A stretch of 64,000 nucleotides of DNA from Anthocerotibacter panamensis C109 (GTDB lineage: Bacteria; Cyanobacteriota; Cyanobacteriia; Gloeobacterales; Anthocerotibacteraceae): NCBI RefSeq assembly GCF_018389385.1, contig NZ_CP062698.1, positions 2,545,501 through 2,609,500 on the forward strand. The letters run 5' to 3'. The number at the start of each line of letters is the position of its first letter. Within the stretch, counting starts at the first letter, position 1. Under the pieces are notes generated by a model, which had not been told where the DNA came from, did no database searches, and saw nothing but the letters and a program-made list of their open reading frames with translations. The translations under genes and the position numbers were made by a program. Below, piece by piece: positions 47,602 through 61,624 of this stretch.

Positions 47602-47988
47602 TCACTCCTCAAAGTAATCGTTGTCTACCTTGGGAACCTTGGCTACGCGGTGGGTCACGCCCACTCCATACTCAATGAGGAGTTGTGCAAGTTTTTCACC
47701 ATCGATCAGCACGACTTTTTCCACTGAATTGGCAAACTCAATGGCATATTTTGTAAAGGTTGAAGTAGTTATGAATACACCTTTATTGGCTTTTCGACCT
47801 GCTAGCGCTCCATAAAAAGCTTGTACGGCTTCACGACTAATCGAGCCTTGCCATCGTTTGGCTTGTACAAAGACTTTCTCTAAACCTAATCGGTCCAAGG
47901 AGATAATCCCGTCAATTCCACCATCTCCCGATCTACCTACATGCTGAAGGTCTGCACGGCTAATCCCGTACCCCATCGCATGAAGCAA
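47602..47988 (-). pseudogene. Mrr-type restriction endonuclease catalytic-domain fragment
   Basis: The 128-residue frame holds the Mrr_cat core of type IV/Mrr endonucleases: VGRSGDGGIDGII with the catalytic aspartate, VFVQAKRWQGSISREAVQAF with the Q-x-K motif, and KGVFITTSTFTKYAIEFA. Full Mrr proteins have about 300 residues, with a winged-helix N-terminal domain; here a stop sits about 26 codons before the listed TTG start and no good start lies between. It is probably the remnant of a larger gene, or a minimal stand-alone Mrr domain. It sits between the recA fragment and the CRISPR operon. Confidence 0.7.
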
Positions 47989-48602: not shown

Positions 48603-50213
48603 ATGATAGGCTTATGGCTAAGCAGTAAGTACACTCCAGAGAAGTTCCCGATGGTCCGTTATACAGCGATCACTTTTGCCCCAGTCCAGGGTTTTATCGA
48701 GAAATCTCGTAAGTTGAGAGATTTATTCGGTGCGTCGTTGGTTTTGTCCTATTTGAGCTTCCAGATTGTGCAAGAGGTTGAGCGTGAGCAGATAGGGCAA
48801 GTTATCTCCCCTGGAGGGGTTAACATCCAAAAGGGTATGCCCAATCGCTTGTTAGTGAAGGGCGAAGTACCTGAGCACGAAGTCCAGAAAATGCTCTCGG
48901 CGAGTTGGTGGAGGATTTTAGAGCAATGCCGAACCTGGATCGAGGGGCATGTCCCGGATGAATACCACTGGGAGGAAGAGTGGAAAAACTGGGGGCATCA
49001 CGCCTGGGAAATTTTTTGTGGACATGGGGACACGATTGCTGAAGCGATGAATGATCTGGAGACGCGCAAACTCCGGCGGCAGTGGACGGCGTTGAACTGG
49101 ACTGGGGAGAGTTCGAGTATCACCGGGGCTGATGCGGTGGCATGGCCGGGATTGGGTAAAAAAGTTGACCCCCGAGAGCGCAACTATACCCAAGAAAAAA
49201 GACTTATCAGAGCCTATTACGAGCGTTTAGCGGCTGCACTGGAGGAGACAACACATGATGTTCAAGGAAAGTTCCTTTCGCCAGAAGAGCAGTTGAGTAT
49301 TCCTGAATTGGTGAAGCGTTTGGTGACGCGTGAGCAGGATATCGCGCGTGCCTTGAAAATGGAAACTTTAACCAAGAGTTTCACAGATATCTACCGCAGA
49401 CCAGAGAAGGGGAGCACGGATGAAGGGCGTTGGACGGGTTGGTTTATGGGGGATGGCGATAGAGTTGGTGAGCATCTCACGAAATTAGCTGAGCAGCAGG
49501 ATGGAGAGGCCAAGCTTAGGGAATTTAGTGTGGCGATGCGGAAGTGGGGGAAAAAGTTTACTGATCGCTTCTCCAGTGACTTAGGTCGGGTCGTCTATGC
49601 GGGGGGCGATGACTTTTTGGGGGTGCTCTATCGCCCACAGGACAAGGAATCTCTAACTAAAGAGGATGTCTTGGCTTGGTTGTTGGGATTTGCTGAAAAA
49701 TGGGGTGAACACGGACAAAAAAGAGTTGACGACAAACCGCTCACAGTGAGTATGGGTTTTGTTTGGGTTGCGCCACGGGTGCCACAGCGCGATGTGCTAC
49801 AGCATTGTCGGGAGGCTGAGAAGCGCTCCAAAAGTCTGGGTCGTGACCGGGTGACGCTGCGGGTCGTCTTCAACAGCGGTCAGTATGTCCAGTGGACTTG
49901 CCCTTGGGGGTATCTGCCGATTTTGAACCAATATCGGGACCGGGCGGGGGTGCAGCGCGGTAAGGATGCCAACTGGAGCCATGTCTATAAAGACCTAGCG
50001 CAACTAAAGGCTCGCCACGGGATTGTTTTGGATGAAACAGCGACGGATGACCGGGTAGCCCTGGCCCTTTTTGGTATCTATTTCGGGAAGGAACAGCGGG
50101 AATATCTCTCACGAGAACGAGAAGAGCTGGTTGGTTCTAGTAAGCCTGGGGCTATGAATGAATGGATTAATGACCTGATTCAAGTGGGGTGGCAGTTATG
50201 TTCCAGTACCTGA
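48603..50213 (+). CDS. cas10: Type III-B Cas10/Cmr2, HD-less
   Basis: Cas10 is the large subunit that, when target RNA binds, makes cyclic oligoadenylate. The N-terminus (YTAITFAPVQGFIEKSRKLR) begins directly at the first Palm domain, so the N-terminal HD nuclease domain is missing; the 536 residues are short for Cas10. A first Palm-type acidic motif is GWFMGDGDRVGEH (about residue 279) and the catalytic GGDD lies at about 334-337 within YAGGDDFLG, intact. ATG 48603 has AGGA just upstream, but ATG 48651 fits homologues better. It overlaps cmr3. Synthase activity is expected; target-DNA cleavage is not. Confidence 0.93.
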   Translation: MIGLWLSSKYTPEKFPMVRYTAITFAPVQGFIEKSRKLRDLFGASLVLSYLSFQIVQEVEREQIGQVISPGGVNIQKGMPNRLLVKGEVPEHEVQKMLSASWWRILEQCRTWIEGHVPDEYHWEEEWKNWGHHAWEIFCGHGDTIAEAMNDLETRKLRRQWTALNWTGESSSITGADAVAWPGLGKKVDPRERNYTQEKRLIRAYYERLAAALEETTHDVQGKFLSPEEQLSIPELVKRLVTREQDIARALKMETLTKSFTDIYRRPEKGSTDEGRWTGWFMGDGDRVGEHLTKLAEQQDGEAKLREFSVAMRKWGKKFTDRFSSDLGRVVYAGGDDFLGVLYRPQDKESLTKEDVLAWLLGFAEKWGEHGQKRVDDKPLTVSMGFVWVAPRVPQRDVLQHCREAEKRSKSLGRDRVTLRVVFNSGQYVQWTCPWGYLPILNQYRDRAGVQRGKDANWSHVYKDLAQLKARHGIVLDETATDDRVALALFGIYFGKEQREYLSREREELVGSSKPGAMNEWINDLIQVGWQLCSST

Positions 50214-51193
50214 TCACGGTGAACCCGCTGGGGTTGCTCTATGGCAGCGCGGGGCCGTTTCTATCACCTGAGAATTTAGTGGGTCGTTCTGGGGCTAAGT
50301 TTCCCCCGGAAGCAGCAACGTTGTCGGGGTTGTACTTCCGGGACTTAGAAGAATCCCGGCGAGGGGAATTTAGAGATCTAGTCCTGGCGGGGCCGTTTTG
50401 GGCTGAGGCTTGGGCTGAGGCTGATGAACCAAAACGTTTTTATGTGCCCATTCCCCGGTCCAAGATTATTGGTAAAGAGGCTGTGGATGAGTGGCGCTTG
50501 GGCACGGGGGGGTGGGAGCGCTCTACCCGTGACCTGACTCCAGATTTTCACTGGCAGTCGATTCATGAGTGGAATAAGCCTGCGGATGTTCTTCGTTCTA
50601 ATCAAGGTGCCGTTGCTGAAGCTCCTTGGAAATTTATTCCCATGCTGCATCCCCGTCTGAAAGCGGACGAACGCACGGTGGTAGAGGGGGATCTATTTCT
50701 GGAAAATGCTGTGCAGATGAAGGAGGGCTACTGTCTGGTTTATCTGGCAACCCACCCGCTCCCGGAAGGCTGGTATCGCTTTGGGGGTGAGAACCATATT
50801 GCGGAGGTGGGCTGCCAACCGCTGGGGAGGCAATTGCTGAAGCTTTTGAGGCAACCGGTTGGGCGGAGTTTTGCTTTAATCACACCGGGCGTCTGGGGAT
50901 CTAACCGCTTCTCCTACCGCCATCCGCAACATCCCGATTTCCCAGAAGTTCAACATCTTTTGACTGAAAAGCCTGTGCCTTATCGCTATCACTTGGGGAA
51001 AAAATTGAGCCGGGGGCGCTACGCTGTGCCCGCTGGCAGTGTCTATGTCTTGGACCGGCCTATTGAAAAGCCCTGGTTCGATTGGGCGGAGGAATGGTTT
51101 CCGAAGGAAGGCCGCTGTCTCCGAAGTTGGGGGTGTGGTCTTGCGCTACCGCTAGAAATTCCAGGATTGTCGTCTATTGAAGGAGTTGCTTAA
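50198..51193 (+). CDS. cmr3: Cmr3 (Cas5-group RAMP)
   Basis: About 331 residues from ATG 50198 (the upstream GTG at 50189 is in frame). It starts MFQYLITVNPLGLLYGSAGP and has the Cmr3 features SGAKFPPEAATLSGLYF, a glycine-rich loop LGKKLSRGRYAVPAGSVYVL, and ITPGVWGSNRF. Cmr3 sits at the foot of the complex and grips the 5' handle of the crRNA. It overlaps the end of cas10 by 16 bases, and its stop overlaps the cmr4 start (TAATG). A Csm4-type assignment is less likely because of the Cmr2-type Cas10. Confidence 0.87.
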   Translation: MFQYLITVNPLGLLYGSAGPFLSPENLVGRSGAKFPPEAATLSGLYFRDLEESRRGEFRDLVLAGPFWAEAWAEADEPKRFYVPIPRSKIIGKEAVDEWRLGTGGWERSTRDLTPDFHWQSIHEWNKPADVLRSNQGAVAEAPWKFIPMLHPRLKADERTVVEGDLFLENAVQMKEGYCLVYLATHPLPEGWYRFGGENHIAEVGCQPLGRQLLKLLRQPVGRSFALITPGVWGSNRFSYRHPQHPDFPEVQHLLTEKPVPYRYHLGKKLSRGRYAVPAGSVYVLDRPIEKPWFDWAEEWFPKEGRCLRSWGCGLALPLEIPGLSSIEGVA

Positions 51194-51996
51194 TGTACCA
51201 AAAAGCTTATGGTTTGATCGAGACGCTTGCTCCTCTTCATGTGGGGGCTACAGCGGGTGAGGAGAGTGGAAATCTCAATCTCATTTTCCGGGACCAGTTT
51301 ACGCGGACGGGCATTGTTCCCGGTAGTTCGATCCGCGGGCGTTTTCGCTCCGAGATGTACCATGCGGATGCAAACGAGACCAACTATTGGTATGGTCATG
51401 AGTCTGTTACGGGTCAAGAGAACAGCACTACGGAATCCCTAGTCAAGTTTGAATATGCCTCGATAGTCTGGTTGCCGGTCTTTTGTCCGGGGCAACCGAT
51501 TGTTTGGGTGAGTTGTCCGAGGTTATTGAAGCGCTACAAGCGGATTGCTGGTGTTGAAGGGGCTGTTCCAGATCCTTATACGGGGTCGAGCAATCTACAA
51601 GGGCGGGAGAGTGGCGGTCAGCGGACGCTCTTTTTTAACTTGGGCTTTTTGACGATTCATAAAGTACAAGATTTCACGGGTTGGTTCCCAGACGGGATAC
51701 AACAACCGGCGGTGGTCGTGGATGACAGTGATATAGGCATGATTCATGATATGGCACTCTATCGTCAGAGTCGGGTGGCTCTCAATAAAGAGGAAAAGAA
51801 AGTTAGCGAAGGTGCTTTCTTTAATACGGAAGCTTTACCGGAAGGAACGTTGATGGTTTTTCCGATTGCGCTACGCAAGGAAGATAAGGGTGCAACGTGG
51901 AATCCCTTTGATGATGGCAAGGAAGCAGAGCTATACCTCGGAGGGTTGGAATCTATTGGTTTTGGACATTGCCGTATTACGTTACGAGGGATTTAG
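51193..51996 (+). CDS. cmr4: Cmr4 (Cas7 backbone), catalytic aspartate apparently lost
   Basis: Cmr4 forms the helical backbone and normally cuts target RNA every six bases. The 267-residue protein reads TLAPLHVGATAGEESGN near residue 11 and TRTGIVPGSSIRGRFRSE at 37-54, the RAMP core. In Cmr4/Csm3 relatives the catalytic aspartate lies five residues before the basic residue of the R/K-E/D pair (D-x-P-x-x-R/K). The ungapped alignment to the PGSS motif puts Leu28 there, with Asn29 next, in GNLNLIFRD. If correct, the backbone binds but does not cut RNA. The start overlaps the cmr3 stop. Confidence 0.85.
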   Translation: MYQKAYGLIETLAPLHVGATAGEESGNLNLIFRDQFTRTGIVPGSSIRGRFRSEMYHADANETNYWYGHESVTGQENSTTESLVKFEYASIVWLPVFCPGQPIVWVSCPRLLKRYKRIAGVEGAVPDPYTGSSNLQGRESGGQRTLFFNLGFLTIHKVQDFTGWFPDGIQQPAVVVDDSDIGMIHDMALYRQSRVALNKEEKKVSEGAFFNTEALPEGTLMVFPIALRKEDKGATWNPFDDGKEAELYLGGLESIGFGHCRITLRGI

Positions 51997-51998
51997 TC

Positions 51999-52391
51999 AT
52001 GACTTGGCAATCGTACCAATTGGACCGCAAAGCGCAAAAGCTTGTTCTCAACTATCGCGATGATAAAGATGTTTTGAACCAAGCGCATAAAATGCGGATG
52101 ACGGCTCCTTATGGGCTAGAACGCTTCTGGGGAGAACGGCTCAGGCTGTCTCGGGAGCGGAATAATAAGGCTAAATACTGGGGGGATACTTGGCAGGCTT
52201 TTGTTGAGATTATGGCTGTGGCTGGCGTTGCTATTCCTAATGACAGTGTGGGCGAGCGAGAGACCACTAAAGTACAGGCCATGGCAACTAAACTATGGGC
52301 ATTGCCGCTGGAAGATCAGAAGGTTGCTCTAGCTGTATTGACGCAGTTCTGCGATTGCTTGGTTTGGTGGACGCAACGGTACAAACCATAA
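51999..52391 (+). CDS. cmr5: Cmr5-like small subunit (Cas11)
   Basis: From ATG 51999 the product has 130 residues and is almost all helical, as in the small subunits of type III complexes. Family-type segments include LERFWGERLRLSRERNNKAK, KYWGDTWQAFVEIMAVAGVA and MATKLWALPLEDQKVALAVL. Cmr5 proteins bind the target strand along the belly of the complex. Sequence similarity in this family is low, so position (directly after cmr4, 2 bases away) is part of the evidence. An upstream in-frame start at 51969 would overlap cmr4 and is less likely. Confidence 0.75.
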   Translation: MTWQSYQLDRKAQKLVLNYRDDKDVLNQAHKMRMTAPYGLERFWGERLRLSRERNNKAKYWGDTWQAFVEIMAVAGVAIPNDSVGERETTKVQAMATKLWALPLEDQKVALAVLTQFCDCLVWWTQRYKP

Positions 52392-52403: not shown

Positions 52404-53996
52404 ATGACGAGTACTAAAGTTCCGCTGATGTTTCGTGCTCAGATTCAGGGGCGCTGTCAACTTCAATATCCACCAAGCAACGATGCTCAAACGTGGGCCT
52501 ATGAGTGGGTCGTCAAAGCATCTGATCAAGTTCCTCGTTTTGGGGTTGGGGTAAAGACTCGGCCTTACACCTTTAATTGGCGCTTTGTCACCAATAGTGG
52601 TCAGGATGAGGGGGTGATCCGGCCTGTGATCGGGGCTAGGGGGTGGCCTTTTTATCCGGGGGCGAGTATGAAAGGAGCCTTTCGACGCGTCTGTCCTCCT
52701 GAACTAGTCAAGTGTTACTGCGGGGATGATGAAAAGCTAAGTCCTGGTATTCTTCGCTTTCACGGTGGCTATCCGGTAGATAACCGCTGGACGGACCGCA
52801 AACGGTTGGTGGATGTGGTTCATCCTCAGGAGTCCTGGCAGATTAGGCATGAATCACACCACAGTGCATCGGCGCAGATCTCTCTGTATCAACCGACTTT
52901 GGCTTTTGGGATATCGAGTAACACTGTGCTATCTGAGGAGAAATGGGCGGAGATTTGGAATGTTTGGGAGCGGGCGCTAGGGTTGGGGTTAGGTTCGCGG
53001 GTCAGTGCGGGCTATGGTCAATTGAAGGTTAAGCATGAGAATGCTCTGCTTACGGTCAATCTCAAGGGTCAGGGTCCGGCTTCAATGCTGGTGAATAAAT
53101 CTCCTGAGTTTCGCCCCAATATGTTTAAAGCGGCGCTTCGGGGTCATACGCTCCGGTTGCTGGGTGGGCTGACGGATGCTGGGAATGCTGAAACGATCAC
53201 GAAGGAATTATGGGGCGGTTTTGCGGAGAGAAATGGCGCAATTGTCGGCAAGCTAGGTATTGCTTTTGATGCCCGCAACTTGGAATTAGATAGGCATGGG
53301 AATAATCAGCTCCCGGTCTATGAGTTGGAGCAGGGAACGCTTTCGATTTTGGCTATGAAGTCTCTTGAGGATCTGGAGCGACAACAGTTAGCCGGAGTTA
53401 CTGGGCTTTTGGTCCGGTTTACTATGCTTCTTGGTGGGTTTGGGAAGTCGTGGCGGAGGGTAGATCACCGTCTTTTCTTTAATAGTTATGCCACTCAGCC
53501 TAGAAATCCAATGATTGGTTGCCATTGGGAATTTAACAGTGTATCCAGAAATCTGTACTACCCGGTCAATGAGCTGGCTGAGGTAACTTCATATCTCAAA
53601 AAGATTAGGGGTGCCTTTAGAAGCTGGCTCAAGAGCAAAGATGTACCCATCATTCCTGAGGGGAGTAATTGGTGTGAAGCTTGGCATCCTGATCATGTTC
53701 AAGTTTGGGGAAGACTTGCCCCGAACGGTGAGAGTCAGGCGGTCAAATGGTTTCATGGTCCTTACCAAGGGGCTCAGACGATTAAGGGATCTGCTTTAGC
53801 GGGCAAAATGGGCCAAATAGGGCGGATCTGGCACCGCATGTATCCTCGAACAACCACTAATGCAAGCGGAGTTATTCAGGGTCCGAACGGCTATGTAGAG
53901 CTACTCACGATCTTCCCTGATGACTCCTCATCTACTCGTGCTTTTTTGGAGTTTTTGCAAACGAGAAGTGAATTTGAAAAGGTATGGCCTTTATAG
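52404..53996 (+). CDS. cmr6: Two-domain RAMP: Cmr6 fused to Cmr1-like domain
   Basis: About 530 residues from ATG 52404, chosen because AGGGAG lies 8 bases upstream. Domain 1 (to about 235) is Cmr6-like: ARGWPFYPGASMKGAFRRVC and the glycine-rich loop LGLGSRVSAGYGQL. Domain 2 (about 240-530) is another RAMP: MFKAALRGHTLRLLGG, then ELWGGFAERNGAIVGKLGI, LVRFTMLLGGFGKSWRR and, near the end, KWFHGPYQGAQTIKGSALAG. The last two resemble Cmr1, for which there is no separate gene. Cmr1 and Cmr6 cap the target end of the complex, so a fusion would link adjacent subunits. The second domain assignment is less certain than the first. Confidence 0.72.
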   Translation: MTSTKVPLMFRAQIQGRCQLQYPPSNDAQTWAYEWVVKASDQVPRFGVGVKTRPYTFNWRFVTNSGQDEGVIRPVIGARGWPFYPGASMKGAFRRVCPPELVKCYCGDDEKLSPGILRFHGGYPVDNRWTDRKRLVDVVHPQESWQIRHESHHSASAQISLYQPTLAFGISSNTVLSEEKWAEIWNVWERALGLGLGSRVSAGYGQLKVKHENALLTVNLKGQGPASMLVNKSPEFRPNMFKAALRGHTLRLLGGLTDAGNAETITKELWGGFAERNGAIVGKLGIAFDARNLELDRHGNNQLPVYELEQGTLSILAMKSLEDLERQQLAGVTGLLVRFTMLLGGFGKSWRRVDHRLFFNSYATQPRNPMIGCHWEFNSVSRNLYYPVNELAEVTSYLKKIRGAFRSWLKSKDVPIIPEGSNWCEAWHPDHVQVWGRLAPNGESQAVKWFHGPYQGAQTIKGSALAGKMGQIGRIWHRMYPRTTTNASGVIQGPNGYVELLTIFPDDSSSTRAFLEFLQTRSEFEKVWPL

Positions 53997-54004
53997 GAGG
54001 GGAA

Positions 54005-55579
54005 ATGACTACTTGGATCGTGACCATTGGCAACAGTGACGTTAAATTTAAGCCCAAAAATCATTGGCAGCATCTGTATAGTAAATCTGATTATGAATGG
54101 GAGTGTTCCAGTCCATGCGTCTCTCAACCACAGAAAGATCCTAAAGATAAGCTCTTTGGGGTTCCTGCCCGTTCTATGGGAATTGTCTACAGCAATCAAC
54201 AGGAATACTACGAGGAGCTTTCTTTTCCACTCCTTGAATGTTTTATTCAGTATTTTGAGCAGAATAACTTAAAAATAAAGAGGATTTTTTGTATTCTCAC
54301 AGATCAATCTGAAATAATAACTGGTATAGGTCGCAAGTTAGATGACTCTCCTTTTTGGCAAGATACCTGCACGTTACTTCCTATCTTGGAGGACTATTTT
54401 AAAAAGTGTTTTCCCGATGCTGAAATAAATCCTTTATGCTTAAGTCCAAAGGTTGGAGAAAAGGGTCTGGATCATTGGAATGATACCCTTGGTTTAACTG
54501 AAAGACTGCTAGGCTCTGTTGAACTTGAAAAGAATCAAATTGTCTATATAAGCCATCAAGCAGGCACTCCAGCAATGTCTTCTGCGGTTCAATTTATCAG
54601 CCTTAGCAAGTTTGGGAAGGATGCTCATTTTCTAGCTCTTAATCGTTCTGATATAGAGCAACCTGTAGAGAAGATTGTTAGCTCATCTTATTTGCGTAGA
54701 GTTCAGATCCAAGAGGCTAAACGTCTTATCCTTGAGGGTTTACCTGGAGCGGCTCTAAACTTATTACAAGCCCTCGATAAAGAGTTGGGGGAGAAGCGTG
54801 ACTATCCTAAACTAGAAGAGTTAGTAGATTATTTCAATCTCAATCAGACTGGTTCAGAAAGTGGCTTAGCTCTTGAAATTGAACCTGCTACTCAACGGAT
54901 AGTGGATACTCTTGCCCTGATTCAGCTTTTCTTTGAACGTCAAAATTATCTTCAAGGGATTTCTCTACTGGCAGCGGCTCAAGAAACTTTCATGAAGGTA
55001 GCTATACTCAAAAAAGTCTCAGAGATTACAACAACATTTCCTGGCAAAAATGGACCTGTCAAGGTTTCAGACTTAGTTAGATGGTCAGACCGTGGCCTGT
55101 TTTTAATACCTGATGAGGAATTAGATGTCCATTTTCCTCAAGTTACTGATCATTTTAAAAATCAAGTATTGCAAAAGCTGAATTATGGGCTTCCGGGATA
55201 CAAGCGCGATGATCGCAACAAGCGCGATGATTTCAAGAAGATGAACAATAATAACGAACTCTTACGTTGGCTTGGGAGACTGGAGCAAAAGTTTAAACCT
55301 TGGGATATGTTGCTTTGGTCCTGTAATAGACCTTTTGAGGAAAGTAATCCTGATCTGCGAAATCAACTTATGCATAATCTCCGGGGTGTTGATGAAAATG
55401 AAGTCAAGAAATATCTTCTCGGGTACAAGAGATCTAATTCTCCTGAGAGTGTTATTGATGTTTTCAATTCTGTCAAAGAGAAGTTTGAGGCGGAATTAAA
55501 GCGATTTAAGCTGGTTGGAGAAGAGAAAGAGATTAGCCTGTATAAGCGCCTTAGGGATGCGGCTAATTCTTTAACTTGA
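54005..55579 (+). CDS. CARF-HEPN ribonuclease (Csm6/Csx1-like)
   Basis: From ATG 54005 (AGGAGG 5 bases upstream) the protein has 524 residues. The N-terminal CARF-like Rossmann domain begins TTWIVTIGNSDV and carries the nucleotide-binding stretch YISHQAGTPAMSS (about 181-193). The C-terminal HEPN domain contains RNQLMH at 452-457, the R-N-x3-H signature of RNA-cutting HEPN enzymes. These proteins are activated by cyclic oligoadenylate from Cas10 and degrade RNA indiscriminately. A middle helical region of about 150 residues links the two. It is 8 bases after cmr6, the last gene of the operon. No ring nuclease is adjacent. Confidence 0.85.
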   Translation: MTTWIVTIGNSDVKFKPKNHWQHLYSKSDYEWECSSPCVSQPQKDPKDKLFGVPARSMGIVYSNQQEYYEELSFPLLECFIQYFEQNNLKIKRIFCILTDQSEIITGIGRKLDDSPFWQDTCTLLPILEDYFKKCFPDAEINPLCLSPKVGEKGLDHWNDTLGLTERLLGSVELEKNQIVYISHQAGTPAMSSAVQFISLSKFGKDAHFLALNRSDIEQPVEKIVSSSYLRRVQIQEAKRLILEGLPGAALNLLQALDKELGEKRDYPKLEELVDYFNLNQTGSESGLALEIEPATQRIVDTLALIQLFFERQNYLQGISLLAAAQETFMKVAILKKVSEITTTFPGKNGPVKVSDLVRWSDRGLFLIPDEELDVHFPQVTDHFKNQVLQKLNYGLPGYKRDDRNKRDDFKKMNNNNELLRWLGRLEQKFKPWDMLLWSCNRPFEESNPDLRNQLMHNLRGVDENEVKKYLLGYKRSNSPESVIDVFNSVKEKFEAELKRFKLVGEEKEISLYKRLRDAANSLT

Positions 55580-56007: not shown

Positions 56008-56130
56008 AAGTTTTACCTGTACTCACTTCAGCGCTAGACTAGCATGTTTTTATGGAAGAGGTGGGCAAATGTCTCATGTCTATGGAAGGTCCATGTTTCT
56101 CGTGATGAGGTAGGTGTTTTCAACATAGAA

Positions 56131-56345
56131 GTACTTCTTTCAAAGAACAAGGTACTTCTTTCAAAGAATAAGGTACCTCTTTCAAAGAATAAGGTACCTC
56201 TTTCAAAGAACAGGGTACTTCTTTCAAAGAATAAGGTACCTCTTTCAAAGAACAAGGTACCTCTTTCAAGCAAAAGGGTACTTCTTTCAAAGAATAAGGT
56301 ACCTCTTTTAAAAAATAAGGTACCTCTTTCAAGCAAAAGAGTAGG
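56131..56345 (+). repeat. 21-base tandem repeat, ten copies
   Basis: Ten consecutive units start with GTAC at 56131, 56152, 56173, 56194, 56215, 56236, 56257, 56278, 56299 and 56320, followed by a partial unit at 56341. The consensus is GTACCTCTTTCAAAGAATAAG with C/T and A/C variation; the last units carry CAAGCAAAAG instead. Because 21 is divisible by 3 both strands stay open across the block, which explains the apparent frames there. The repeat is not in a recognised gene. Confidence 0.95.
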
Positions 56346-56365
56346 CGTTTGAAAGAAAGAGGTAC
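56320..56365. repeat. Inverted copy closing the 21-base repeat block
   Basis: GTACCTCTTTC at 56320-56330 is perfectly repeated in inverse as GAAAGAGGTAC at 56355-56365, with 24 bases between. It makes a stem that caps the tandem array on the side of the CRISPR. Confidence 0.7.
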
Positions 56366-56417
56366 TGATAGCTCAGATCTGGCTATTTTGCAGCGCTACC
56401 AAACGCCCCCCCGCCCT

Positions 56418-56567: not shown

Positions 56568-57708
56568 GTTTCCAACTAATCGCCCTCAAAGAGGCGTGAA
56601 GACGCAATCGCAAGTAGTTTTTCAAAGGACGGTAACTACGTTTCCAACTAATCGCCCTCAAAGAGGCGTGAAGACAGATTCTCACGCTGAATCAAAAGAC
56701 TGCGCTCGACCTAGTTTCCAACTAATCGCCCTCAAAGAGGCGTGAAGACCAGGACAAGAGCGTTCACATCGTTCTCAACTGCTATTCGGTTTCCAACTAA
56801 TCGCCCTCAAAGAGGCGTGAAGACGTCAAGTCTTCAATCTTCTGCTCTGCCGCTTTCAGCCCGTTTCCAACTAATCGCCCTCAAAGAGGCGTGAAGACCT
56901 CGTTGAGGGCTAGGTTGCGCTGGATTTTCCCGTAGTTTCCAACTAATCGCCCTCAAAGAGGCGTGAAGACATTGAACGAGTTGAAGCCCTGGCGGCGCTT
57001 GACCTGTTTCCAACTAATCGCCCTCAAAGAGGCGTGAAGACGCAATTTGTGCGTGATTGCAAAAAAGCTATTGAAGCATGTTTCCAACTAATCGCCCTCA
57101 AAGAGGCGTGAAGACCCGATTCTCCTTGTGGATAGGTGTTGATAGCCTTGCCAGTTTCCAACTAATCGCCCTCAAAGAGGCGTGAAGACCCGATTCTCCT
57201 TGTGGATAGGTGTTGATAGCCTTGCCAGTTTCCAACTAATCGCCCTCAAAGAGGCGTGAAGACGCCATTTTGGGCGAAGGCGCAGGTACCCTCGGAGAGG
57301 TTTCCAACTAATCGCCCTCAAAGAGGCGTGAAGACTCGGTTGGATTTCGATGCCTTCGCTGAGATTACTAACCAGCGTTTCCAACTAATCGCCCTCAAAG
57401 AGGCGTGAAGACGACGAGGCAGTACAGGCGTCGTATATCCTGGCGGCAATTGGTTTCCAACTAATCGCCCTCAAAGAGGCGTGAAGACACCCGTATGGTT
57501 GGAGATACGGGAACGTCCGCTACGAGTTTCCAACTAATCGCCCTCAAAGAGGCGTGAAGACGACATATTGGATGACCTTGCTCTATAAATGACCAAAATG
57601 TTTCCAACTAATCGCCCTCAAAGAGGCGTGAAGACATGGTTGATGCTAAGGAAGGTGAACTTCGAGTGACTGGTTTCCAACTAATCGCCCTCAAAGAGGC
57701 GTGAAGAC
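56568..57708 (-). CRISPR. CRISPR array, 16 repeats and 15 spacers
   Basis: Sixteen 36-base repeats start at 56568, 56640, 56714, 56789, 56863, 56935, 57006, 57080, 57154, 57228, 57300, 57377, 57453, 57526, 57600 and 57673. On the plus strand each begins GTTTCCAACT and ends GTGAAGAC; all appear identical. Read on the minus strand the repeat ends GATTAGTTGGAAAC, like the usual 3' repeat end that gives the crRNA 5' handle, and its core GCCTCTTTGAGGGC can form a short stem. That, and the cas1-cas2 genes upstream on the minus strand, put the leader at the high-coordinate side. Spacers are 35-41 bases. Spacers at 57116-57153 and 57190-57227 are identical. Confidence 0.98.
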
Positions 57709-57899: not shown

Positions 57900-58175
57900 C
57901 TAGACCGAGTAGTAAGACGGCTGTTCCAGAGGCGGGTCGCCCCCCCAGGTGATGATACTAGAACGCATCCCTCCAGCAATGGGATAAAACCGAACCGAAT
58001 CCTCAGTCGCCTGACATAACCGTTGTAAGCGGTCCTTAAGCTCATGGAACTGCTTCTGTTCCAAATCACACTCAAAAACACTAAACTGCACCCGTTTTCC
58101 GTAGCCTGAGAGCAGCGTCGCCACTTTAGTCCGGCGCTTCGTGACCGGAATATCATACGTGACAATCCAGAGCAT
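57900..58175 (-). CDS. cas2: Cas2 endoribonuclease-fold adaptation protein
   Basis: This 91-residue protein has the ferredoxin-like Cas2 fold. It starts MLWIVTYDIPVTKRRTKVAT, with the conserved aspartate of the first strand (YDI), and contains GKRVQFSVFECDL as the second motif. It ends with a short beta strand region IITWGGDPPLEQPSYYSV. Cas2 dimers bridge two Cas1 dimers and hold the prespacer DNA. Its start lies 2 bases after the cas1 stop. Confidence 0.96.
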   Translation of the reverse strand: MLWIVTYDIPVTKRRTKVATLLSGYGKRVQFSVFECDLEQKQFHELKDRLQRLCQATEDSVRFYPIAGGMRSSIITWGGDPPLEQPSYYSV

Positions 58176-58177
58176 GA

Positions 58178-59179
58178 CTACCGCGCCCTATGTACAACAA
58201 ATTCCCGCGAAGGATCATAGACCACCGCCCGATACGCCTGCACATAAAAATCCACCAACTCCCAGCGCAACCCCTCCTTGCCAGAGGGCAATTGGATAGA
58301 CTCCCCCATGCGCCGTTCAAACTGCTCGATGACCAACCTGCGCCCCCGGTCATTGAGCAAACAAGCCCCCTCTTTATACTCAAAGCACTCCAGCGACAAT
58401 ACCCGCGTATTCACCAGCATCAACACCAAAGCATCCACAATCGGCGCACGGAAAGGCTCAATCAAATCCGAAACCAACGCAAGATGATCCGAACGCTCCA
58501 CATGCAAATGCCCCTGATAAGGGTCAAGGCTGCTGAGTTCCACCAGTGCGCGCAGGTGATTCCACAGCAGACTATACCCAAAGCTGAGTAGCGCATTCAT
58601 CGGATTAGTCGGCGGTCGGCGGACCCGGTGCGTCAGTAAAAACTCCCCATGCGTAATCTGTCTACCTAACGCCGGGAAATACTGAGCCGCCGCCGCCCCC
58701 TCAAAACCCAGTAGCGCCTGAAGGTCAGTCGCCTGAGCAGCCCTGCGTTCCAGGTATTCCAAAACCTCTATGGCAAACCCATTCTCCTCCACTAGCCGCC
58801 TGCGTCCCAACCGTTGCAGCAAGACCCGCTGATTGTGAATTTTGGCTGCCACTAAAGTCCGAGCTAGGTCTAAGGAGCGTATGTCATCGCTAGCCAAAAC
58901 CTTCTGAAGGCTCCACAACCGTCCCATTCCCCGCGCGAGCGGACGTAGCGAACCATAAAGCCAACCCTGACGCGACAGGTAAGCCACACAAATCCCTCGC
59001 TTCAGACACGCCCGCGTCGCATCCAGCGTCAAGTGTGAGCGCCCAAAAATCAAAACTCTATCCAGTAGCGGTAACGGAACTTGCTGAACCAATCCGCCTT
59101 GACGATAGACCACCAACTGCTCCCCCGTGAGCCCCAACTGAGAGCCCTGCTCCAGCACATAAAGGCTAGTCACGTTCAT
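58178..59179 (-). CDS. cas1: Cas1 integrase
   Basis: From the chosen ATG the protein has 333 residues and starts MNVTSLYVLEQGSQLGLTGE. Upstream in-frame codons would extend it by 23 residues into csx18 and are unlikely. Active-site residues are in NPMNALLSFGYSLLWNHL (after the glutamate-bearing region) and in HVERSDHLALVSDLIEPFR, with the histidine and aspartate/glutamate metal ligands. Cas1 inserts new spacers at the leader end. The absence of a fused reverse transcriptase indicates DNA-derived spacers, or that an RT is encoded elsewhere. Operon order is csx18-cas1-cas2. Confidence 0.95.
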   Translation of the reverse strand: MNVTSLYVLEQGSQLGLTGEQLVVYRQGGLVQQVPLPLLDRVLIFGRSHLTLDATRACLKRGICVAYLSRQGWLYGSLRPLARGMGRLWSLQKVLASDDIRSLDLARTLVAAKIHNQRVLLQRLGRRRLVEENGFAIEVLEYLERRAAQATDLQALLGFEGAAAAQYFPALGRQITHGEFLLTHRVRRPPTNPMNALLSFGYSLLWNHLRALVELSSLDPYQGHLHVERSDHLALVSDLIEPFRAPIVDALVLMLVNTRVLSLECFEYKEGACLLNDRGRRLVIEQFERRMGESIQLPSGKEGLRWELVDFYVQAYRAVVYDPSREFVVHRAR

Positions 59180-59402
59180 CCCCACCGCGTGCCGCCAACA
59201 GTTCGACAGGGGTATCCAACAAACCCCGAGTAATCCGGTCCGCAACAAAACCTACCCCCAGACTAGAAAGAGTGACCGCGAGGGTGCAGGTAATGACCGC
59301 CGCCAAACCCAAAGGCGCAATCAGGAGAATCACCAAAGTGACCAGACCATTAAAAAAAGCCACCGAACCAGTACGAACCAAGTAGAGACGTTGCGTATTC
59401 AT
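59166..59402 (-). CDS. csx18: Csx18-like small membrane protein
   Basis: From ATG 59402 (GAGG 6 bases upstream) it has 78 residues. It starts MNTQRLYLVRTGSVAFFNGL, has two hydrophobic segments (VTLVILLIAPLGLAAVITCT and LAVTLSSLGVGFVADRITRG), and ends in a charged tail ARGGDERD. Small two-helix proteins with ILLIAPLGLAAVI are the Csx18 family found next to cas1 in cyanobacterial type III loci; I rely on memory for that family name. Its stop overlaps the cas1 start by 14 bases. Membrane location is likely; function is unknown. Confidence 0.7.
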   Translation of the reverse strand: MNTQRLYLVRTGSVAFFNGLVTLVILLIAPLGLAAVITCTLAVTLSSLGVGFVADRITRGLLDTPVELLAARGGDERD

Positions 59403-59617: not shown

Positions 59618-61624
59618 ATGTCATCTTCCTTTGCTCCTCTGCGCTCTCACTTCCTGATTGGTCCCGCCGGGAGCGGCAAATCCACCTTTGCCACCCGACT
59701 AGTACAAGCTAACCCCGCCCTAGTTGTGGTCTCCACCGACGACATCCGCCAGGATTTATACGGGGATGCGACAATTCAAGGCTTATGGGCAGAAGTGGAG
59801 CAAGCAGTCATCGTCCGGGTACAAGCGGCTATTCAGTCCGGGCGACCAGTTATTTACGACGCGACAAACATCAAACGCCCTTGGCGGATGCAGCTTATCG
59901 AAAAATTTTCATCCTTGGGTGCGACATCCTGGCTGGCGTGGTACCTCAAGACGCCCCTAGAGACCTGCCTCTACCAGAACACCCAACGAGACCGGCAAGT
60001 TCCCCCCCAGGTTATTCGCCGCCATTTTAAAGAACTCGAAACCTTTGCGCCCAATCCGGCAGAGGGTTTTATTAACGTAGTGACCCTAGGTAAAACCGTA
60101 CAAAACCAGTTTGTCATCTTGCCTGAACTGCCCGAGATCCAGCAAGAAATCGCCCGTTTGTCCACCACCATCCAACGAGCAAACCGCTATGCCCAGCAGA
60201 CCCGCCACGGCTACTCACGCCTCAAAGACTTCGAGCGGTTGCTATTCCTGCTCGCTCTGGTACTCCATCACCCCGGAGCCGGAAACCTCCACGAAACCCA
60301 CCCCGAACAACTCCATCACCTGCTCGGGCACACAGAATTTTTTCTTACCGCAGAAGAAGAAATAGCCGCCCTACTCAGTAAACTGCATCATCCGCTCTAT
60401 GCAGACACTGCGGCACTCACCCAAGACCTGCAATGGTTACGGGAAAACGCCTTGCTCACCACAGATGTACAAGATCTACAGCAACCCTATAAAAAACTAC
60501 AACAGCCCCCCTTTACTGGAGAAGCAGATGTCCGAACCGCCCACAGCTACGGCGATTGGGAAGCCTTTGAGCGGCTCCTTACCACCCTGCGCTATATTCT
60601 CTACCATCCTTTGGGCCTAGAGGAGGGAGGAGCCTTAGTCGCCCTTGTCCAAGGACTCACCAAAGATGGCCTCCACGTCCACCCCGATAGCGTTCGTCGG
60701 GATATTGGTGAGGTGCTTAAGCCCTACGACCTTTTGCGTGGGCGCATGTTCAAGCAGGGCTATTACGCCGGTACCGCTATCTTTTCTCGGGAAGAACTCC
60801 AGAACATCCATGCCGTGCTCTACTCTCAGGCACAAAGCCTAAAAAATCCCCTCGACCAAGCAATTTACGAGCAATACACCCAAAAAATGCAACAGGCGCA
60901 AATCGGCGAAGCGCCTTATCCCGTCCGGGCGATTGCCAACCGGATCATCGTCCCTACCTCCTCGGAGGATTTGCCCTCAGATAGTCTGTACCGGAACCTG
61001 GAACAACTAGAGCGCTACATCACAACGGGCACGCTCCTCCATCTCTCCCTCAAGCAAAATGTAGGCACTTGGCCCAAAGACAGAAAGGGCTTGTTCAGTG
61101 CTTGGCCTCTGCAAATAGTCTTTCACAACATCGCATGGTACTTAGGCTACGAACACAAAGAAGATGGACTGTTTCGCTACGGGCGGCTCGACCGGCTATT
61201 TCTGGCCCAGCCACTCCCCCAACCGCGCGGCATCGACCTCCAAAGGCGCTCCCTCAAACGGATCGATACCCTACTCAAGGGCAGTGCTTTTCTTTTTTTA
61301 GGGGACGATCCCAGGCAGCAACAACTCTTCTTGAATACCAAGACCCGCTCCACAGTCCAGGTAGTGGTAGAACTTTGGTTCACTAAAGCCTTGTCTCAAT
61401 TTATCCAAGAGGGCACAAAAAGATTTACCCAGCAAAAGCTTGACTTCAACACAGGCAATACACGCTTCCCCTGCCGTCTAGTCGCGACGCTGCCCATTTG
61501 GTCGATCGAGGATATTGACCTCCAACGCTGGATCTTAGGCTATGGCGACCAAGTAAACGTGATCCAGCCCCAGTCTCTAGCCGAAAAAATCCAGCACATT
61601 ATCAAGAGTATGCGTGCCCTTTGA
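59618..61624 (+). CDS. P-loop kinase fused to a WYL-domain regulator
   Basis: The 668-residue protein begins with a polynucleotide-kinase-like P-loop domain: FLIGPAGSGKSTFATRLV (Walker A near residue 14), VVSTDDIRQDLYGD, and VIYDATNIKRPWR with the lid arginines. Residues about 200-310 are helical. A winged-helix-like segment follows around 340-400 (VHPDSVRRDIGEVLKPYDLL). The C-terminal part has a WYL domain: HNIAWYLGYEHKEDGLF and YGRLDRLFLAQPLP. WYL regulators control defence systems and bind nucleic acids or nucleotides. It is divergent from csx18-cas1-cas2, so it may regulate them; a kinase acting on RNA or DNA ends is also possible. Confidence 0.78.
   Translation: MSSSFAPLRSHFLIGPAGSGKSTFATRLVQANPALVVVSTDDIRQDLYGDATIQGLWAEVEQAVIVRVQAAIQSGRPVIYDATNIKRPWRMQLIEKFSSLGATSWLAWYLKTPLETCLYQNTQRDRQVPPQVIRRHFKELETFAPNPAEGFINVVTLGKTVQNQFVILPELPEIQQEIARLSTTIQRANRYAQQTRHGYSRLKDFERLLFLLALVLHHPGAGNLHETHPEQLHHLLGHTEFFLTAEEEIAALLSKLHHPLYADTAALTQDLQWLRENALLTTDVQDLQQPYKKLQQPPFTGEADVRTAHSYGDWEAFERLLTTLRYILYHPLGLEEGGALVALVQGLTKDGLHVHPDSVRRDIGEVLKPYDLLRGRMFKQGYYAGTAIFSREELQNIHAVLYSQAQSLKNPLDQAIYEQYTQKMQQAQIGEAPYPVRAIANRIIVPTSSEDLPSDSLYRNLEQLERYITTGTLLHLSLKQNVGTWPKDRKGLFSAWPLQIVFHNIAWYLGYEHKEDGLFRYGRLDRLFLAQPLPQPRGIDLQRRSLKRIDTLLKGSAFLFLGDDPRQQQLFLNTKTRSTVQVVVELWFTKALSQFIQEGTKRFTQQKLDFNTGNTRFPCRLVATLPIWSIEDIDLQRWILGYGDQVNVIQPQSLAEKIQHIIKSMRAL

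What the first reader, a model, noticed from the sequence alone, without database searches (positions are those of the whole stretch)
51193..51996. Cmr4 backbone subunit appears to lack the catalytic aspartate
In Cmr4 and Csm3 proteins the RNA-cutting aspartate lies a fixed distance before the P-G-S-S motif. Counting back without gaps from PGSS at residues 43-46 puts Leu28 in that place, with Asn29 next to it, in the segment GNLNLIFRD. No Asp or Glu fills the position. If so, target RNA would be held rather than cut, and because cutting normally ends signalling, cyclic oligoadenylate production could last longer.
Basis: partly seen in the sequence, partly recalled or inferred. Interest (0 to 1): 0.68.

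Follow-up and report, generated by a model that had tools for sequence, protein, structure and literature searches.

The report
CRISPR backbone missing its RNA-cutting residue
A bacterial immune complex that should cut the foreign RNA it detects has lost the amino acid needed for cutting, as have its relatives across cyanobacteria, so it probably only raises an alarm, and how that alarm is switched off becomes an open, testable question.

Summary
ORF 51193-51996 (+) is a type III-B Cmr4 (TIGR02580, 92 bits, cut-off 87). No acidic residue fills the catalytic Asp position: gap-free counting gives Leu28; profile alignments give Asn29 or a one-residue deletion at the Asp. Asp34 matches a separate conserved acid that Asp-bearing Cmr4s also carry, so it is no substitute. 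This is a lineage trait: all 109 distinct close relatives read, all cyanobacterial, share GN[LI]N[LMIF][IV]FRD, and three more distant cyanobacterial Cmr4 families (including Synechocystis 6803 III-Bv and a second locus in this genome) also lack the Asp. They form one side of a well-supported branch, apart from Asp-bearing Cmr4s. In the window's family Cas10 also lacks the HD DNase domain but keeps the GGDD cyclase motif (102/104), and Csx1 keeps its HEPN RNase motif (64/64). Best reading: a crRNA-guided RNA sensor and cyclase that cuts little or nothing itself and defends through second-messenger-activated effectors. Not shown: absence of cleavage, or longer signalling. Glu24 and loop 26-34 are almost invariant, so a rebuilt active site is possible. 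Engineered RNase-dead Cmr4 causes autoimmunity in Saccharolobus, so the off-switch is the real question. No earlier report was found in open-access papers.

The parts
51193..51996 (+). cmr4 (Cas7 backbone subunit), 267 aa, without the catalytic Asp
   Evidence: TIGR02580 92 bits; PADLOC Cmr4; PDB fold matches to Cmr4
51268..51294 (+). codons 26-34, GNLNLIFRD: the catalytic loop with L28 (51274-51276) or N29 (51277-51279) in place of Asp; D34 is the separate R-[ED] acid
51319..51330 (+). codons 43-46, PGSS motif used as anchor
48651..50213 (+). cas10/cmr2, about 520 aa: no HD domain, palm domains with YAGGDDFL kept (an upstream ATG at 48603 is also possible)
   Evidence: Pfam Cmr2_N at residue 5 and palm2; PADLOC Cas10b 691 bits
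50189..51193 (+). cmr3 (Cas5)
   Evidence: Pfam Cas_Cmr3; PADLOC Cmr3
51999..52391 (+). cmr5 (small subunit); ORF opens at 51969
   Evidence: PADLOC Cmr5 216 bits
52398..53996 (+). 532-aa RAMP protein, probably the Cmr6-Cmr1 fusion described for other cyanobacteria
   Evidence: PADLOC Cmr6 PDLC01212 713 bits over the whole length; fusion reported for Microcystis in PMC11855584; the Cmr1 half was not tested
53984..55579 (+). csx1, CARF-HEPN effector, with RNQLMH (HEPN RxxxxH)
   Evidence: PADLOC Csx1 532 bits; RNxxxH in 64 of 64 homologs
56568..57708 (+). CRISPR array, 16 repeats of 36 nt, GTTTCCAACTAATCGCCCTCAAAGAGGCGTGAAGAC (repeat strand not determined)
57900..58175 (-). cas2
   Evidence: TIGR01573 and Pfam
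58178..59248 (-). cas1
   Evidence: Pfam Cas_Cas1 273 bits

Best explanation
The locus encodes a type III-B (Cmr) complex of a cyanobacterial lineage whose Cmr4 backbone has lost the catalytic, metal-binding Asp, and whose Cas10 (in this family) has also lost the HD DNase domain. The complex would bind complementary target RNA through its crRNA and not cut it, or cut it only weakly. Binding activates the intact Cas10 palm/GGDD cyclase; the second messenger activates Csx1 (CARF-HEPN RNase) or, in sister loci, other CARF effectors, which carry out the defence. Switching off must come from something other than Cmr4 cleavage: release of the target, destruction of the bound RNA by Csx1, or breakdown of the messenger by CARF or Csx3-type ring nucleases. 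Shown by sequence: loss of the Asp and of HD, intact GGDD and HEPN motifs, conserved operon. Inferred: no cleavage, signalling-only action, the alternative off-switch, and the identity of the messenger.
For: No acid in the catalytic position in any register. All 109 distinct family members lack it, as do families B, C and D. Families A-D fall together on the tree apart from Asp-bearing Cmr4s (100/99; SH-aLRT 100 with the catalytic stretch removed). Glu227 of Pyrococcus Cmr4 (next to Glu228 in WYEEY) aligns with Thr212 here. Cas10 has no HD and keeps GGDD in 102/104. HEPN motif intact in 64/64 Csx1; 64 of 75 loci with full flanks carry a CARF effector. Published: Asp mutants abolish cleavage in every type III system studied (PMC8682760, PMC11026444).
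Against: No biochemical data exist for this family. Loop 26-34 is nearly invariant (mean column entropy 0.02 bits against 1.14 for the whole protein) and Glu24 is 33/33 conserved, which could mean a rebuilt active site. Engineered RNase-dead Cmr4 is lethal in Saccharolobus (PMC9368842), so loss without compensation would be costly. The AlphaFold model has low confidence at residues 20-25.
Confidence: 0.7

Rival explanations
1. The active site has been rebuilt. Glu24 (invariant here; a Glu also precedes the GNL motif in most family B members), possibly with the Asn pair, binds the metal, and Cmr4 still cuts target RNA at 6-nt intervals.
For: Glu24 33/33, N27, N29, R33 and D34 invariant in the family; Glu20 invariant in the 15 family B sequences aligned in A6; the loop was not predicted with confidence.
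Against: The acid is not kept across the clade: family C has SSRGNNN, and two family B members have TQAGNL. Its distance from the GN pair varies between families. Canonical Cmr4s generally have no matching acid.
Confidence: 0.2
2. The locus is decaying, and the missing Asp reflects loss of function rather than a working variant.
For: Some sister loci look incomplete (Gloeothece Cas10 annotated in two pieces; Synechocystis sp. B12 without an annotated full Cas10).
Against: All genes in the window are intact, with array and cas1-cas2. Operon, GGDD and HEPN motifs are conserved across more than 100 loci, and the loop is the most constrained part of the protein.
Confidence: 0.04
3. Target RNA is still cut within the complex, but by another subunit (the Cmr6-type fusion) or an associated RNase, so the loss in Cmr4 has little consequence.
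For: The fusion protein is a RAMP with its own PGAS motif and is conserved with the operon.
Against: From general knowledge, Cmr1 and Cmr6 have not been shown to cut target RNA in studied Cmr complexes. No Asp was identified at the matching place of the fusion on reading its sequence (not tested by structure).
Confidence: 0.06

Closest known systems
Vibrio metoecus VmeCmr, type III-B with NucC (PMC8682760)
   Same: HD-less Cas10, GGDD cyclase, defence through a second-messenger-activated effector; target cleavage very slow, so cyclase presumed to stay active
   Different: Its Cmr4 keeps Asp26 and cuts; prophage-borne; effector NucC, not Csx1
Engineered RNase-dead Cmr4 (D27A) of Saccharolobus islandicus Cmr-alpha (PMC9368842)
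   Same: III-B complex without the Cmr4 catalytic Asp
   Different: Laboratory mutant; causes dormancy or death through Cas10 HD and palm activities, whereas here the state is natural and stable
Synechocystis sp. PCC 6803 CRISPR3, subtype III-Bv
   Same: Cmr4 on pSYSA also lacks the Asp (GNLLGIARE, L136)
   Different: Family B, about 30% identical; Cas10 of 979 aa with an N-terminal LLHDP motif; different accessory genes
[quoted passage not shown]
   Same: Cas7 without conserved catalytic aspartates
   Different: They have lost the cyclase and keep HD, predicted to cut DNA; here the cyclase is kept and HD lost
Canonical Cmr4 (Pyrococcus furiosus, Thermus thermophilus)
   Same: Fold, PGSS-type motif, His of the H-x-G motif, operon context
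   Different: They carry the Asp in [IV]D-x-P-I; the family here is one residue shorter there and has no acid

Membership tests
Type III-B CRISPR-Cas (Cmr) | Cas10/Cmr2 with palm domains | tested here: met
   Pfam Cmr2_N and Cas10-Cmr2_palm2, GGDD present; PADLOC Cas10b 691 bits
Type III-B CRISPR-Cas (Cmr) | cmr3, cmr4, cmr5 and cmr6/cmr1 in one operon | tested here: met
   the Cmr1 part of the fusion was not tested separately
Cmr4 protein family | Score above the curated cut-off of TIGR02580 | tested here: met
   92 bits against 87
RNase-active Cas7 of type III systems | Catalytic Asp before the PGSS motif | tested here: not met
   L28/N29 or deletion in every register
RNase-active Cas7 of type III systems | Cleavage of target RNA at 6-nt spacing | not testable with these tools
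   needs biochemistry
cOA-signalling type III system | Intact Cas10 GGDD motif and a CARF effector at the locus | tested here: met
   GGDD 102/104; CARF effector in 64 of 75 full-flank loci; window Csx1
cOA-signalling type III system | Second messenger made on target binding | not testable with these tools
   needs biochemistry; messenger identity unknown
Subtypes III-G / III-H | Inactive Cas10 cyclase with active HD | tested here: not met
   GGDD intact, no HD
Subtype III-Bv (Synechocystis type) | Close relationship of the Cmr proteins to the 6803 system | tested here: inconclusive
   Cmr4 about 30% identical, sister family on the tree; crRNA maturation by RNase E not tested

The most novel reading that the evidence does not exclude
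A large natural lineage of type III-B systems, including those most common in cyanobacteria, works without target RNA cleavage. In the window's family the complex is a pure RNA sensor and cyclase with no nuclease of its own, and its signalling is ended by some mechanism other than Cmr4 cleavage, contrary to the view that Cas7 cleavage is the general timer of type III immunity.
Probability: 0.5. Interest if true: 0.8.

Novelty: new variant of a known kind. Interest (0 to 1): 0.62.

Why it matters
Cutting of the bound target RNA by Cas7 is held to be the timer that ends type III signalling; removing it by mutation in Saccharolobus causes autoimmunity (PMC9368842). A widespread natural lineage without the catalytic residue would show that this timer can be dispensed with and must have a replacement. 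The lineage includes a genetically tractable model, Synechocystis 6803, so the question becomes directly testable. [quoted passage not shown] this would be a broad exception.

Tried and rejected
Viral contig scans with the single protein, the family A alignment and a family B alignment gave no relatives. The mixed alignment had no stretch fit for a genome-contig scan, so family A alone was used; one of its two search patterns was the Asp-less motif itself, so that scan cannot count Asp-bearing relatives. The independent whole-protein search removes this bias for the phylum. Other phyla could not be centred in the genome search, so Asp-less Cmr4 outside cyanobacteria was sampled only through plasmid records (Thermus and Allochromatium keep the Asp). 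No coordinates are returned, so residue-level superposition was not possible. Paper searches found no earlier report for cyanobacterial III-B; Behler 2018 (III-Bv) was not readable. Considered and rejected: Asp34 as the catalytic residue, a start or ORF error, a degenerate locus.

Full report
Observation. The 267-aa product of 51193-51996 (+) has GNLNLIFRD at 26-34 and PGSS at 43-46. It is Cmr4 by TIGR02580 (92 bits, cut-off 87) and PADLOC; its AlphaFold model (mean pLDDT 88.5) matches solved Cmr4 chains first. In Asp-bearing Cmr4s the Asp stands 15 residues before the P of PGSS; here that is Leu28. hhalign against an Asp-bearing Cmr4 profile (probability 99.5%) pairs Thermus Asp27 with Asn29 and leaves the following Pro unpaired. 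A profile search of the PDB shows Pyrococcus Asp26, and the matching Asp of 9arw and 9x25, as one inserted residue. Leu28, Asn29 and outright deletion are three readings of one fact: the stretch is one residue short and holds no acid. Asp34 pairs with the Glu of the canonical R-E pair, which occurs together with the Asp.

Is it local? No. A search of 386 genomes of the phylum found relatives of any distance in 71; of the roughly one hundred Cmr4s read and aligned, all of families A to D lack the Asp. A scan of GTDB genomes gave 210 close relatives, of which the best 80 were kept, all cyanobacterial. In 115 loci with 109 distinct Cmr4 sequences, every one has GN[LI]N[LMIF][IV]FRD. Three more distant families also lack the Asp: B (GNLLGIARE; Synechocystis 6803, Microcystis, and a second locus in this genome), C (GNNNPIFR, where Asn fills the Csm3 Asp33 place) and D (GNILEIARE). 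Asp-bearing Cmr4s do occur in the same phylum (L116-L119) and act as controls, as do Asp-bearing Cas7-like proteins of a further type III locus in the window's own genome. Families A-D form one side of a branch with 100/99 support, also when the catalytic stretch is cut out before building the tree (SH-aLRT 100). A fifth Asp-less group (E) nests among Asp-bearing sequences, so the loss happened at least twice on this tree. Long branches are present, so the count is approximate.

Surroundings. Gene order is cas10, cmr3, cmr4, cmr5, a Cmr6-type fusion, csx1, CRISPR array, cas2, cas1. Cas10 begins at the first palm domain and has no HD; GGDD is kept in 102 of 104 relatives. Csx1 keeps RNxxxH in 64 of 64 homologs. 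Of 75 loci with full flanks, 64 carry a CARF effector, sometimes CARF-RelE or another CARF-HEPN type in place of Csx1. In the examples read, families B and D mostly keep an N-terminal LLHDP motif as in HD domains, Microcystis p1 has lost it, and family C has no HD. Only the window's family and family C therefore appear to lack both nucleases.

Mechanism. Established elsewhere: Asp mutants of Cas7 do not cut target RNA in the type III systems studied (PMC11026444, PMC8682760), and binding of target activates Cas10. From that and the anatomy, the likely mode here is detection, messenger synthesis and Csx1 action without cutting by the complex. In Saccharolobus an engineered dead Cmr4 causes dormancy or death that depends on the HD and palm activities of Cas10, while several Csm systems tolerate dead Csm3 (PMC9368842). 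VmeCmr, HD-less and slow-cutting, is the nearest tested analogue (PMC8682760). The off-switch in the cyanobacterial lineage is unknown; a Csx3-AAA ring-nuclease candidate sits next to only 4 of 115 family A loci. The strict conservation of loop 26-34 and of Glu24 shows that the site still does something, either RNA geometry or catalysis by a replacement acid; I give the latter 0.2.

Novelty. [quoted passage not shown] I found no report of the loss in cyanobacterial III-B, and a 2025 Microcystis paper supposes Asp catalysis by Cmr4 (PMC11855584). Only open-access papers were searched, so an earlier mention elsewhere cannot be excluded.

Noticed in passing
59618-61624 (+): 668-aa protein with an N-terminal AAA_33 (kinase-like P-loop) domain and a C-terminal WYL/WCX region; relatives sit beside 39 to 57 of 115 family A loci depending on the threshold. 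It could be a regulator or RNA-end enzyme tied to this system.
   Followed up: partly
own genome C1:1305588-1312149 (L075) and C1:2639908-2640699 (L074): Two further type III loci in the same genome: one with several Cas7-like proteins that keep Asp (III-D-like), one III-B of family B with Asp-less Cmr4 and a long Cas10 with an LLHDP motif.
   Followed up: partly
L093, L097, L102, L105, L113, L114 (family C Cmr4): Natural Asp-to-Asn form (GNNNP[IV][FY]R) with HD-less Cas10; it aligns with the Asn or Ala of Csm3 chains 6ifk and 9zs2, which look like laboratory-made inactive mutants.
   Followed up: partly
L120-L123, L126 (family E Cmr4): Weak Cmr4 relatives from genomes of the same phylum but another class; the Asp is replaced or the loop deleted, and they nest among Asp-bearing Cmr4s, an independent loss.
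   Followed up: partly
L181:4155-5150 and three other family A loci: Csx3-AAA ring-nuclease candidate near the operon in 4 of 115 family A loci.
   Followed up: no
56044-56390: 21-bp tandem repeat array next to csx1 that leaves long open frames on both strands.
   Followed up: no
57080-57227: Two consecutive repeat-spacer units of the CRISPR array are identical over 74 nt, a recent duplication of one spacer.
   Followed up: no
47602-47988 (-): 128-aa ORF matching only the C-terminal part of a type IV methyl-directed restriction enzyme model, upstream of cas10; perhaps a remnant.
   Followed up: no
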